Below, piece by piece: positions 10,702-14,337 of a DNA stretch of 64,000 nt. Made by a program: the position numbers and the translations under genes. Each line of letters starts with the position of its first letter. The stretch's first letter is position 1. This DNA is from Candidatus Bathyarchaeota archaeon (GTDB lineage: Archaea > Thermoproteota > Bathyarchaeia > Bathyarchaeales > Bathycorpusculaceae). The stretch is taken from assembly GCA_026014745.1 (NCBI GenBank), contig JAOZHS010000001.1, positions 372,001 through 436,000 of the forward strand. The letters run 5' to 3'. The notes below the pieces were generated by a model that searched no databases, had not been told where the DNA came from, and saw only the letters and a program-made list of their open reading frames with translations.

Positions 10702-11031
10702 TTATACCTCTTTGGGTTTGATTGCCTTCTGCAGCACTTCAACCAATTTATCGATTGAGGGTAACCCCCCATAGAGCGCCAACTCCTCATTGACAAATAG
10801 AGCCGGCAGTGCATCCATCCCGTATCTGTCAAAGAGGGGTCTGAGTTTGCTCATGTCACCGATTTTTTTACCATAATATGCTTCGGTTGCAGTCACAACC
10901 TCAATCTCCGCATGAGTGTTTACGGTGCCAAGGGCTTGTTTGACTCTTTTTGTATATTGCTCATCCATCGGTTTGAGTGCTGGGTTACAGCAGGAGGCTG
11001 TAAGAATCGTGACTTTCAGATTACTGTCCAT
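10702..11031 (-). CDS. Thioredoxin-like small protein with vicinal Cys pair
   Basis: A 109-residue thioredoxin-fold protein. The first strand runs into TASCCNPALKPMDEQY, which has a Cys-Cys pair (residues 14-15) where thioredoxins carry CxxC. The cis-Pro strand is DALPALFVNEEL, followed by YGGLPSIDKL. It overlaps the 3' end of the Get3/ArsA-type ATPase gene by 11 bp, so the two are translated together. In arsenic operons the partner of ArsA is the thiol metallochaperone ArsD, also a small thioredoxin-like protein. A chaperone or electron-transfer role for the ATPase is therefore the best guess. It lacks ArsD's usual Cys arrangement. Confidence 0.75.
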   Translation of the reverse strand: MDSNLKVTILTASCCNPALKPMDEQYTKRVKQALGTVNTHAEIEVVTATEAYYGKKIGDMSKLRPLFDRYGMDALPALFVNEELALYGGLPSIDKLVEVLQKAIKPKEV

Positions 11032-11938
11032 AGAGTTGCTTCCCTACCTTTCTGAGGCTTTCGATGCCATAGATGTCGGTTTCAAAGAGGGGAACCTCTC
11101 TTCTTAGGAGCCCTTCAAATCGGGTTTCTATTTCTTTAAAGTATTTTTCTTGTGTAGCTCGCCTTTTCTCCAGAAACCAGTTGCCATTAAGAACGTTGGT
11201 TGGGATAACTTCGTTAACAATCAATGAGGCGACGTTTATGCCAAACTTGGATAGGTCCTCGACGGCACGAGCGGTCTCCTCAATTGGCAACTTTTCAGGC
11301 AGTAGTACGAGGTTGAAGGCGGAGGTTGTTTCGTCTGAGAGGCTTTTTACGGCTTGGTCATAGCGGTTCTTCTCCTGTTTTAGCCCTTCTATTGTGTTTT
11401 CGTCTACGCCGCCTAAGGCTTCGGAGAGTTCTTTTCGATTTTTGATTTGGTTAGTCATGTAGCTTGACCAGTCAAAGGGCATTGATAGTTCTCTTAGGGT
11501 GTGTCCTGTGGGGGCGGTGTCGAATACGACGTGGTCGTAGTTTTTGTCGCCTAAGTAGGTGACGAACTGGTCGAAGGCTGCCGTTTCTTCTGCGCATGGG
11601 GTGCTGATGGCGTCTTTTCCGAGGATTTGGTCAAAATTCTGCATCATGCCTTGGAGGCGGTTTTGGAAGACGCCTGTAGCTTTTTTGGGGTTGATGTTTA
11701 AGCCGCAGAGATTTTCGATTTTGTCTATTTTTGTGGTTTCGGTTTCTCCGATTTTTTGTTCGTAGGTTGCGGAGAGGCTGACTGTGGGGTCGGTTGCTAC
11801 GATTAGTGTGTTGTATCCTTGGTCGGCTAGCCATGTGGCTGTTGCGGCTGCCATGGTTGTTTTTCCGACGCCGCCTTTGCCGCCGAAGAATAGGAATTTT
11901 CTTTTTTCTATGATTTTTTTGATGTTGGATTCATTCAT
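11021..11938 (-). CDS. Get3/TRC40/ArsA family ATPase
   Basis: A 305-residue single-domain member of the ArsA/Get3 family of SIMIBI ATPases. It has the deviant Walker A FFGGKGGVGKTT, the switch segment VATDPTVSLSA in place of the common DTDPAHS, and the family signature DTAPTGHTLRELSMPF. One ATPase domain of this length fits Get3-like homodimers as well as archaeal ArsA homologues. No arsenite permease gene is in the window. The ATG at 11938 has GGAG 9 nt upstream; the longer frame would run into the opposite gene's promoter. Role: membrane-protein targeting or metalloid handling, not decided by sequence. Confidence 0.9.
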   Translation of the reverse strand: MNESNIKKIIEKRKFLFFGGKGGVGKTTMAAATATWLADQGYNTLIVATDPTVSLSATYEQKIGETETTKIDKIENLCGLNINPKKATGVFQNRLQGMMQNFDQILGKDAISTPCAEETAAFDQFVTYLGDKNYDHVVFDTAPTGHTLRELSMPFDWSSYMTNQIKNRKELSEALGGVDENTIEGLKQEKNRYDQAVKSLSDETTSAFNLVLLPEKLPIEETARAVEDLSKFGINVASLIVNEVIPTNVLNGNWFLEKRRATQEKYFKEIETRFEGLLRREVPLFETDIYGIESLRKVGKQLYGQ

Positions 11939-11953
11939 TGTTGGTATCTCCAA

Positions 11954-11970
11954 TATCGGATTTACCGATA
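11954..11970. promoter_or_regulatory. Inverted repeat, candidate operator 1
   Basis: TATCGG-attta-CCGATA, perfect 6-bp arms. It lies between the shared TATA box and the expected transcription start of the ATPase gene, where a bound repressor would block initiation. Confidence 0.55.
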
Positions 11971-11973
11971 ATG

Positions 11974-11979
11974 TTATAA
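11974..11979. promoter_or_regulatory. Shared symmetric TATA box
   Basis: TTATAA is itself palindromic and is the only good TATA element in the 77 bp between two divergent start codons. It is at a proper distance (about 26 bp) from likely start sites on both sides, so it may serve both directions. Confidence 0.5.
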
Positions 11980-11991
11980 GATTTCGTGTTG

Positions 11992-12002
11992 GTATCCGAT
12001 AC
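11992..12002. promoter_or_regulatory. Palindrome, candidate operator 2
   Basis: GTATC-C-GATAC, a perfect palindrome around one central base. It contains the same CCGATA word as operator 1 and covers the predicted transcription start of the PadR-type gene, which suggests autoregulation. Confidence 0.5.
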
Positions 12003-12015
12003 TGGAGAACCCCAA

Positions 12016-12756
12016 ATGCAGCCACCCCAACCCAACATTTCAGGCAATCTACAAGCTAAAATAATGATGCTCCTAAGAGAAGAAGAGCTATGCGGAATCG
12101 ATATAATGAAACGCCTGCGATTAAAAAGCCCCGGCACAATCTACCCCGTATTAGAAAACCTGCGAACAAAAGGGTTAATTGACTACAAAACCGAAACAAA
12201 CGGTGCAACACGTAAAAAGATCTATTTCCTCACCGAAACTGGCACAAAAAAGATGCATGACCACCTTACCAGTTCTATGAAATTTTGCTGTGACACATCC
12301 AACTATGTTAACAAGATTTTAGGAAACATACAGGGTCTAATAGAAATTAATCGTCACGAAAAAGTGCTCTCCACATTAGACCATAATGAGCTCAAACGTT
12401 TTCTGAAGGGTGCCGATATAACGTATTCAAGTGACCTAAAAGTTCCAGCTGATACGTTTGATACTGCGCTGAGCTTTATAGGCGTAGGTTGCTTAATTGG
12501 AAATACCGACTCCGATATTACTGACTGCTTAAGGAAGCTCCATGCAAGTTTGAAGAAAGGCGGGCATCTTTTAGCTATCGAAACAGAAAAAACCGATAAC
12601 ATGTTTAGCCAAATCCTCTTTGAAGACGTTTTCGGGTTAAATAAGCCGCCGGGGCTGTGTCGGGATGAATTGAAACAAATTTTGGAGAAGACAGGGTTTA
12701 GGGATATTGTAGTTACCGCCAAGATGGGTTTGCTATATGCAACTGCCCAAAAATAA
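12016..12756 (+). CDS. PadR-like regulator fused to methyltransferase-like domain
   Basis: A 246-residue two-part protein. Residues about 5-85 form a PadR-type winged helix (CGIDIMKRLRLKSPGTIYPV, ENLRTKGLIDYKTE, YFLTETGTKKM). The C-terminal part resembles the later half of a class I SAM methyltransferase (LRKLHASLKKGGHLLAIET, then a LKQILEKTGFRDIVVTAKMG strand pair). The usual glycine-rich SAM loop is replaced by a GVGCLIGN-like strand, so catalysis is doubtful and the domain may be a sensor. A vicinal pair, KFCCDTSNY, sits at the domain junction. GGAG is 8 nt before the ATG at 12016. Divergent from the Get3/ArsA ATPase; probably its regulator. Confidence 0.75.
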   Translation: MQPPQPNISGNLQAKIMMLLREEELCGIDIMKRLRLKSPGTIYPVLENLRTKGLIDYKTETNGATRKKIYFLTETGTKKMHDHLTSSMKFCCDTSNYVNKILGNIQGLIEINRHEKVLSTLDHNELKRFLKGADITYSSDLKVPADTFDTALSFIGVGCLIGNTDSDITDCLRKLHASLKKGGHLLAIETEKTDNMFSQILFEDVFGLNKPPGLCRDELKQILEKTGFRDIVVTAKMGLLYATAQK

Positions 12757-12934: not shown

Positions 12935-14337
12935 GTGAAAAGCTTGAAATATTGTCCTAATTGCGGTACCCCTCTTGTAGAACCAAACCCAAAATTTTGC
13001 TCTGAATGTGGCGGGAAATTGAATGTGGAGCAAATTTCAAGCAAGGTTGTTACCTTACCTATGCCCTCTATGTCTGAAGAAGACATTGGGCCTGTTAAGT
13101 TAAACACTTACAACCTTGGAGTTGCTTTAGAAAATACAACTGCATCCATTTTGGAGAAAATGGGTTACTCAGTAGAAAAAAGAAAACGTCTACCCACAAA
13201 AAGTGGTGCAACAGCTGAAATTGACCTTTTGCTGACTAGAGGTAATAGGCGTAGACTTGTTGAGTGTAAAAATTATGACCCCTCACGGAGTGTGCCCGTA
13301 TCTGACATGAGAATATTCAAAGATAAGGTGACGGACACGGCATTCTTTCAGGTTTATTTGTAACTAATACGGTTTTCTCAGAAGACGCGGTAAAATGTGC
13401 TGATTCAGTCGGAATCGAGCTCTGGGACGGCGATGAACATAAGGAAAAGTTTTACGCCTATTCGATTGGTCGAATTAGAAATCCCAGCTTGATCAATGAA
13501 CCGATTTTGCCTATTAATCTGGATTTTTCGGCTGCATCAGCCCTTAATCTCAAAAATAGCAATGTCGTACGCTTATTTTCTTCCGTTTTGCTCTTTCATC
13601 CTTACATAATGGTAAAGTTCAGGCTCCAAGCTAAACGCGCGGACCCAACTGGGAAAGTACATACCTTTTCGGATAATGGTGTCTATTACGTGGATGCTCT
13701 CGATGGAGATATCATAAACTTGGAAAAAAATGTGGTAGACAATGTTTTAGGGTTACTAAAAAGTAAAGAAGAAAAAGTTAGGTCAAAAGAGGATAAGTTA
13801 GTCTCTGAAGATTTGGATAATATTCTTCCTGTTTCCAAGCCTGTCCTGTTAAACTCTGATTATAACGTTTCCCCTGCTGAACCCGAAATCACAGAAGAAG
13901 ACGCTACAAAGATTGTTAAATACCATTTAATTGAAAAAAACAAGCAAGAAGTGTCTTATCAAGTTAAGAAACGAGGCGAAATTGAGACTCATTACTTTTC
14001 TTTCGTACCCCGATTGAAGGAAATAAGCATTAGAGGGGTAAGAATGGTGTATGTTCCAAAATGGAATCTTGAGTATGAATCTGGTGACTATAGCTTCTCA
14101 AGGAGGTTGTTGGCCTCTTCTGGTCAAATAATAGAAGATGATTTAACCAAATGCCGTAAGTGTACGCTATTACGGAAGGATAGCGTTGCGGTTTGTGAAA
14201 AGTGTGGAATTCCACTTTGCGAGAAGCACTTCTATCAAGAAAGCGGTTTGCTATGTGAGGACCATATCTCAGAAACACTCCGGCAAGAAATCAAAGGCAA
14301 TAGTATGCTTTCAACTTTAAAACGGAAGTTCTTCTGA
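12935..14337 (+). pseudogene. Mrr-like restriction endonuclease with zinc ribbons, frameshifted
   Basis: Two reading frames together make one protein of about 467 residues. The first (12935-13363) has a zinc ribbon (C7, C10, C22, C25) and the start of a PD-(D/E)xK nuclease: D97 in AEIDLLL and E110-x-K112 in LVECKNY. It stops at 13361-13363. The nuclease continues in the -1 frame as GLFVTNTVFSEDAVKCADSVG and runs on to 14337. Adding one T to the TTT at about 13344-13346 would restore the frame. The C-terminal part has a treble-clef-like Cys set (CRKC ... CEKCGIPLCEKHF). An alternative start, TTG at 12944, has GGTGA 6 nt upstream. The cause may be a true mutation, programmed -1 slippage or a sequence error. 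Confidence 0.8.

What the first reader, a model, noticed from the sequence alone, without database searches (positions are those of the whole stretch)
11939..12015. Symmetric shared promoter with flanking TATCGG/CCGATA operators
Between two divergent start codons only 77 bp apart there is one TATA-like element, the palindrome TTATAA (11974-11979). It is about 26 bp from sensible start sites on both sides. On one side is the inverted repeat TATCGG-attta-CCGATA (11954-11970). On the other is GTATC-C-GATAC (11992-12002). Both carry the word CCGATA, seen three times. A single TBP site firing both ways, with one operator per direction, would be a very economical switch run by the PadR-type protein encoded beside it.
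Basis: partly seen in the sequence, partly recalled or inferred. Interest (0 to 1): 0.55.

Follow-up and report, generated by a model that had tools for sequence, protein, structure and literature searches.

The report
Archaeal PadR-type divergent promoter operator
A 77-base stretch between two archaeal genes that point away from each other very likely holds the binding sites through which the regulator encoded beside it controls itself and its neighbour; the layout is of a known kind, with an unusual binding word and an unusual fused regulator.

Summary
In detail: 77-bp gap, three CCGATA words, one central TTATAA. The palindromes alone are not striking (one IR with arms of 6 or more in 860 of 4000 shuffles). 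Relatives decide it. The one genus-mate with the locus (G015) keeps the gap at 77 bp and 66/77 identical, with no change in CCGATA x3, TTATAA or either GGAG; fourfold sites of the regulator are only 32/82 identical. A 35%-identical fused regulator in G468 has ATATCG-TTTAC-CGATAT before its start. Of 126 PadR genes, all 5 with recognition helix SPGTIYPVL carry TATCG-N-CGATA upstream; 0 of 121 others do. This differs from the canonical PadR word ATGT/ACAT and resembles operators beside bacterial NfeR/YqjI-like PadRs. Most likely it is an autoregulated divergent switch bound by its own PadR protein. Corrections: GTATC-C-GATAC is not conserved (CCGATA is); IR1 alone could block both directions; the 'methyltransferase' has the fold but no glycine-rich SAM motif. 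Shared TBP use is plausible but untested. The divergent gene is ArsA/Get3-like, followed by an ArsD-like thioredoxin gene; metalloid or thiol sensing is a guess.

The parts
11939..12015 (.). Divergent intergenic region, 77 bp, promoter and operators for both genes
   Evidence: same length and 66/77 identical in G015
11954..11970 (.). Operator 1 (IR1): TATCGG-ATTTA-CCGATA
   Evidence: exact TATCGG-N5-CCGATA occurs once in G000 and once in G015, at this locus in both, and in 0 of the 30 other genus genomes
11987..12001 (.).
11974..11979 (.). TTATAA, candidate TATA box read in both directions
   Evidence: only TATA-like site within 60 bp of the gap among 11 hexamers, overlapping words aside; unchanged in G015
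12004..12007 (+). GGAG, candidate Shine-Dalgarno of the regulator
   Evidence: unchanged in G015
11948..11951 (-). GGAG (CTCC on +), candidate Shine-Dalgarno of the ArsA-like gene
   Evidence: unchanged in G015
12016..12756 (+). Regulator: PadR winged helix (residues 16-81) plus methyltransferase-fold domain without a glycine-rich SAM motif
   Evidence: PF03551 41.8 bits, cut-off 27; AlphaFold model mean pLDDT 66.6; fold matches
12127..12153 (+). Codons for recognition helix SPGTIYPVL (residues 38-46)
12286..12291 (+). Cys91-Cys92 pair, candidate thiol or metalloid site (guess)
   Evidence: kept in G015, absent in G468 homologue
11021..11938 (-). ArsA/Get3-family ATPase, single domain, divergent target gene
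   Evidence: PF02374 268.9 bits; TIGR00345 259 bits over cut-off 135
10702..11031 (-). Small thioredoxin-fold protein with a CC pair, ArsD-like, overlapping the ArsA-like gene end
   Evidence: PF13192 25.8 bits over cut-off 24.8; ArsD models only below cut-off

Best explanation
This is the control region of an autoregulated divergent pair in an archaeon. The PadR-type regulator made from 12016-12756 binds TATCG/CGATA words in the gap, most likely as a dimer on IR1 and again at the right-hand CCGATA, and represses its own gene and the arsA-like/arsD-like pair until an unknown signal releases it. IR1 overlaps the predicted BRE of the regulator promoter and lies between TATA and start site of the arsA-like promoter, so it alone could shut both; the right-hand site overlies the predicted regulator start. 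Both promoters probably share TTATAA, so initiation in the two directions would compete. Shown: positions, conservation, helix-word association. Inferred: binding, repression, start sites, shared TBP use, dimer geometry, signal.
For: Gap 77 bp and 66/77 identical in G015; 0 of 11 changes fall in the 32 positions of three CCGATA, TTATAA and two GGAG (P 0.0015), against 32/82 identical fourfold sites in the regulator and 85/122 in the ArsA-like gene. Exact TATCGG-N5-CCGATA in 2 of 32 genus genomes, the two that hold the locus, once each and at this place. G468, with a homologue 35-36% identical, has a single TATCG-N5..7-CGATA in its whole assembly, directly upstream of that gene; a TATCG-N3..7-CGATA arose in 11 of 20000 shuffles of its upstream 100 bp. 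Helix SPGTIYPVL and the IR go together in 5 of 5 PadR genes against 0 of 121. A de novo search finds the canonical PadR word as ATGTC-N8-GACAT upstream of 44 of 123 PadR genes and downstream of 0, so PadR genes in this lineage do carry upstream operators.
Against: No binding or transcript data. Palindromes alone are near chance. Spacing between TATC and GATA varies (9 here, 8 in L088/L089, 7 in G468), awkward for one rigid dimer. Of the 5 helix cases, the window is the discovery case, G015 is its orthologue, and L088/L089 were known to carry the motif before the count, so Fisher 4e-9 overstates the case; only G468 was found by protein alone. Genome-wide TATCG-N5..7-CGATA is hardly above the reversed control (G000 6 v 4, G015 10 v 8, G468 1 v 4).
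Confidence: 0.72

Rival explanations
1. The words are operators, but each gene has its own start signals: TTATAA serves one direction only and the other promoter is weak or lies elsewhere.
For: In the window the regulator side has GATAAT just before TTATAA, a good BRE by recalled consensus, while the arsA-like side does not (sequence).
Against: No other of the 11 TATA-like hexamers within 60 bp of the gap apart from overlapping words; in G015 the core is more symmetric, TCTTATAAGA.
Confidence: 0.3
2. The regulator activates the arsA-like operon from the right-hand site, upstream of that promoter, and represses only itself.
For: The right-hand site lies upstream of the arsA-side BRE and over the regulator start.
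Against: IR1, the best conserved repeat, lies where it would block the arsA-like promoter; PadR proteins are mostly repressors (recalled).
Confidence: 0.15
3. The repeats are chance or a by-product of similar start regions (CCGATAYTGGAG before both ATGs), not operators.
For: 37 of 4000 shuffles have two disjoint IRs and a threefold hexamer; 860 of 4000 have one IR.
Against: The middle CCGATA is not at a start and is unchanged in G015; G468 and the helix association.
Confidence: 0.07

Closest known systems
NfeR (YqjI) / nfeF (yqjH) of Escherichia coli and alphaproteobacterial relatives
   Same: PadR regulator; in E. coli annotated divergent from nfeF; recognition helix SPGVIYPTL aligns with SPGTIYPVL; relatives on four alphaproteobacterial plasmids have TATC-N9-GATA upstream, the spacing of IR1. 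That NfeR represses both genes through sites in the intergenic region is recalled (Wang et al., J Bacteriol 2011, 2014; not held).
   Different: The E. coli gap holds GATATATC words, no TATC-N5..10-GATA; NfeR has a Cys/His-rich N-terminal tail and no methyltransferase-fold domain; bacterial promoters without TATA/BRE (recalled); target is a ferric reductase.
MsvR / fpaA of Methanothermobacter thermautotrophicus
   Same: Archaeal winged-helix regulator divergent from its target operon, several binding boxes in one intergenic region over BRE/TATA and start site, repression by blocking TBP/TFB, cysteine-bearing sensor domain (passages of PMC3729527). HTH resembles the MsvR model, E 1.2e-6, far below cut-off.
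   Different: Box TTCGTA-N4-TACGAA; V4R domain; MsvR is described as unique to methanoarchaea (abstract start).
Canonical PadR/LmrR autoregulators
   Same: PadR fold, autoregulation.
   Different: Operator ATGT/ACAT with 8-10 bp spacer (passages of PMC3506622); absent from this gap.
Bidirectional promoters from symmetric core elements
   Same: One near-symmetric core element firing both ways; reported for bacteria and archaea (Warman et al. 2021 seen only as a reference in PMC10268837; not held). acrAB/acrR is a bacterial case with an autorepressor (passages of PMC12825309).
   Different: Those passages concern -10 elements in bacteria; here a TATA box is inferred.

Membership tests
PadR family (Pfam PF03551) | PadR-like winged helix above the curated cut-off | tested here: met
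   41.8 bits, cut-off 27; G015 36.6, G468 31.0
PadR family, canonical operator | ATGT-N8..10-ACAT | tested here: not met
   No ATGT-N6..12-ACAT in the gap; the word is an attribute of characterised members, not the family definition
NfeR/YqjI | Helix SPGxIYPxL | tested here: met
NfeR/YqjI | Cys/His-rich N-terminal metal tail | tested here: not met
   Window regulator starts MQPPQPNISG; NfeR MSHHHEGCCKHEG
NfeR/YqjI | Divergent ferric-reductase target | tested here: not met
   Target is ArsA/Get3-like
MsvR (NF053755) | Model above cut-off, V4R domain | tested here: not met
   28.5 bits, cut-off 220, HTH only; no V4R in Pfam scan
Class I SAM methyltransferase, active | Methyltransferase fold | tested here: met
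   Predicted structure only, mean pLDDT 66.6, under 50 at residues 85-114; VIA-align Z 14.9 (2.0 A, 135 residues) to 7pd7
Class I SAM methyltransferase, active | Glycine-rich SAM motif I after strand 1 | tested here: not met
   VLSTLDHNELKRFLKG (window), VLCTLDYKPIKQWLQK (G468): no GxG in 3 of 3 full-length homologues; Pfam matches cover only the second half and stay below cut-off
Arsenical pump ATPase ArsA | ArsA/GET3/TRC40 family | tested here: met
   TIGR00345 259.3 bits, cut-off 135
Arsenical pump ATPase ArsA | Equivalog models arsen_driv_ArsA / ArsA_halo | tested here: not met
   203.9 of 650 and 235.1 of 800 bits; single domain
Bidirectional archaeal promoter | Two mapped starts from one TATA | not testable with these tools
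   needs 5'-end mapping

The most novel reading that the evidence does not exclude
A PadR subclass defined by helix SPGTIYPVL reads TATCG/CGATA instead of ATGT/ACAT, in archaea as in bacterial NfeR relatives, giving a readable helix-to-operator code; in this lineage one member was fused to a dead methyltransferase with a vicinal cysteine pair and became a metalloid or thiol sensor that, from one symmetric TATA, switches an ArsA/ArsD-like operon and itself in competition.
Probability: 0.25. Interest if true: 0.65.

Novelty: new variant of a known kind. Interest (0 to 1): 0.42.

Why it matters
The helix-word association suggests that operator specificity in PadR proteins, a large and little-studied family, can be predicted from nine residues and tested with short DNA fragments. 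It also offers a compact archaeal case for asking whether one TATA box really serves two genes under a single repressor. Otherwise it is an ordinary autoregulated divergent pair.

Tried and rejected
Palindrome statistics alone: not decisive. First AlphaFold model with 2 sequences: mean pLDDT 46, unusable; replaced by one with a 4-row alignment. Regulator relatives in genome contigs: two scans, no relative confirmed. Helix pattern in viral contigs: two scans, one chance hit in a non-PadR protein. Arsenic link through the pump: Acr3 matches in G000, G015 (below cut-off in G015) and G073, none beside this locus; in G015 acr3 sits with an ArsR-like and an ArsM-like gene and has no TATCG/CGATA word in the 300 bp upstream, in G000 there is one CGATA 46 bp before the match start, so no shared regulon was shown. 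Other TATCG-N5..7-CGATA places in G000 and G015, outside the PadR loci: of 6 looked at, 5 lie in open frames of 191 or more codons and 1 does not; four more (one in G000, three in G015) were not looked at. Regulator family in the phylum: 2 of 398 genomes with the C-terminal part and 2 of 398 with the 4-row profile; 9 of 256 in the class at E 0.01, of which only G000, G015 and G468 are strong; 1 of 41 in G468 and its relatives, namely G468 itself.

Literature: ten searches listed no paper that by its title or abstract start is on a TATCG/CGATA PadR operator or a PadR-methyltransferase fusion; the library lacks most subscription journals, so this is weak evidence of absence. Papers were seen as passages or listings only.

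Full report
Observation. The gap is 77 bp, the words CCGATA lie at 11954-11959 (minus), 11965-11970 and 11996-12001 (plus), and TTATAA at 11974-11979 is the only TATA candidate within 60 bp of the gap among 11 hexamers tested, overlapping words aside. Palindrome counts alone do not beat chance convincingly: 860 of 4000 shuffles have an IR with arms of 6 or more, and 37 of 4000 have two disjoint IRs plus a threefold hexamer; 2 of 831 real 77-bp tiles do.

Genes. Minus strand: an ArsA/Get3-family ATPase, single domain, then a small thioredoxin-like CC protein that matches ArsD models only below cut-off; the two frames overlap. Plus strand: a 246-aa protein with a PadR winged helix over cut-off and a C-terminal part with weak, half-length methyltransferase matches. 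An AlphaFold model from a 4-row alignment (mean pLDDT 66.6; under 50 at 1-10, 85-114, 121-126 and 129-133) shows a PadR fold and a methyltransferase fold; VIA-align gives 7pd7 Z 14.9 (2.0 A, 135 residues), PadR 5h20 Z 13.7 (2.8 A, 97 residues), and also anamorsin's methyltransferase-like domain 4m7r Z 12.5 (3.2 A, 132 residues). The glycine-rich SAM motif is missing in all 3 full-length homologues, so I read the domain as a sensor or protein-binding fold; this is inference.

Distribution. 50 of 61 genomes (own and relatives) have a match to the regulator, but apart from G000 and G015 these are weak and mostly to the HTH; the C-terminal part is in 2 of 398 phylum genomes and, within 256 class genomes, strongly only in G000, G015 and G468. 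The ArsA-like gene is in 2 of 32 genus genomes at E 1e-30 and 12 of 398 phylum genomes at E 1e-40. G073 has a 70%-identical ArsA-like gene followed by a CC thioredoxin-like gene, with no regulator among the ORFs of the 3.9 kb listed. Flanks of G073 and eight others were fetched but not analysed further.

Conservation. G015 keeps the gap at 77 bp with 11 differences. None falls in three CCGATA (18 positions, P 0.042), with TTATAA 24 positions (P 0.011), with both GGAG 32 positions (P 0.0015). The same genes are far more diverged at silent sites: fourfold identity 32/82 in the regulator and 85/122 in the ArsA-like gene. GTATC-C-GATAC is broken in G015. TATCGG-N5-CCGATA, exact, is found in 2 of 32 genus genomes, once each, at this place.

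A distant test. G468 carries a 35-36% identical fused regulator without the CC pair and without an ArsA-like ORF in the 3.4 kb listed. Directly before it lies ATATCG-TTTAC-CGATAT, and its TATCG-N5-CGATA core is the only TATCG-N5..7-CGATA in that 1.4-Mb assembly. A TATCG-N3..7-CGATA arose in 11 of 20000 shuffles of its 100-bp upstream stretch; a shared 10-mer with the window gap arose in 405, so that 10-mer is weaker evidence.

Helix and word. Pattern hits led to two plain PadR genes, in G000 (L089) and G015 (L088), with one and three such repeats upstream. I then took the PadR hits: 110 loci, 128 tblastn hits in 100 of them, 123 with distinct upstream stretches, plus the three fused regulators. 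SPGTIYPVL and TATCG-N3..8-CGATA coincide in 5 of 5; 0 of 121 others have it. 19 of the 126 could not be assigned a helix class and are counted among the 121. Ten of the 121 have two or more single TATCG/CGATA words. Helix RHGALYP goes with ATGT-N10-ACAT in 14 of 14 and FGPSTIYP in 25 of 39. The canonical PadR word is therefore present in related genomes, for other helices; PMC3506622 gives ATGT/ACAT with 8-10 bp spacer for characterised PadR proteins (passages).

Link to known bacteria. A plasmid search with L089 found 30 records, all under 60% identical. Of five fetched, four alphaproteobacterial ones have helix SPGVIYPTL and TATC-N9-GATA upstream; the fifth (Nonomuraea, SPGAVYPAL) has no TATCG/CGATA word. 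E. coli NfeR, divergent from nfeF, has SPGVIYPTL and GATATATC words but no TATC-N5..10-GATA. So the archaeal words look like a variant of the NfeR-type operator.

Mechanism. IR1 covers the predicted BRE of the regulator promoter and lies between TATA and the predicted start of the arsA-like promoter; the right-hand CCGATA lies at the predicted start of the regulator gene. One repressor could thus shut both directions. A comparable archaeal layout is MsvR/fpaA, with boxes over BRE/TATA and start in a shared intergenic region (passages of PMC3729527). The signal is unknown; arsenite is a guess from the ArsA/ArsD-like neighbours and Cys91-Cys92, and the acr3 genes gave no support.

Verdict. A real, conserved, very probably autoregulatory divergent operator region; new variant of a known kind.

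Noticed in passing
L100-L173 and L005-L032 (PadR hits): ATGTC-N8-GACAT palindromes upstream of 44 of 123 PadR genes and downstream of 0; often two PadR genes (FGPSTIYP and RHGALYP helices) in one locus.
   Followed up: partly
L088:1722-2344: In G015 a PadR gene with a C-terminal CC is divergent from a small ORF beginning MYDNEEMPCCGHMHGHH, with seven TATCG/CGATA words upstream of the PadR gene; the small ORF resembles the Cys/His-rich N-terminus of NfeR.
   Followed up: partly
L089:2072-3314: In G000 the second SPGTIYPVL PadR gene is divergent from a flavodoxin/ferredoxin-like gene (by eye).
   Followed up: no
window 12935-14337: Two ORFs (12935-13363 and 13489-14337) look like one gene broken by a frameshift, starting with a zinc-ribbon-like CPNCG motif.
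   Followed up: no
L099:1205-3361: G015 has ArsR-like, Acr3 and ArsM-like genes in a row (ArsR and ArsM by eye), away from this locus.
   Followed up: partly
L072:4055-4396: G468 has a second, contig-truncated copy of the regulator's C-terminal domain.
   Followed up: partly
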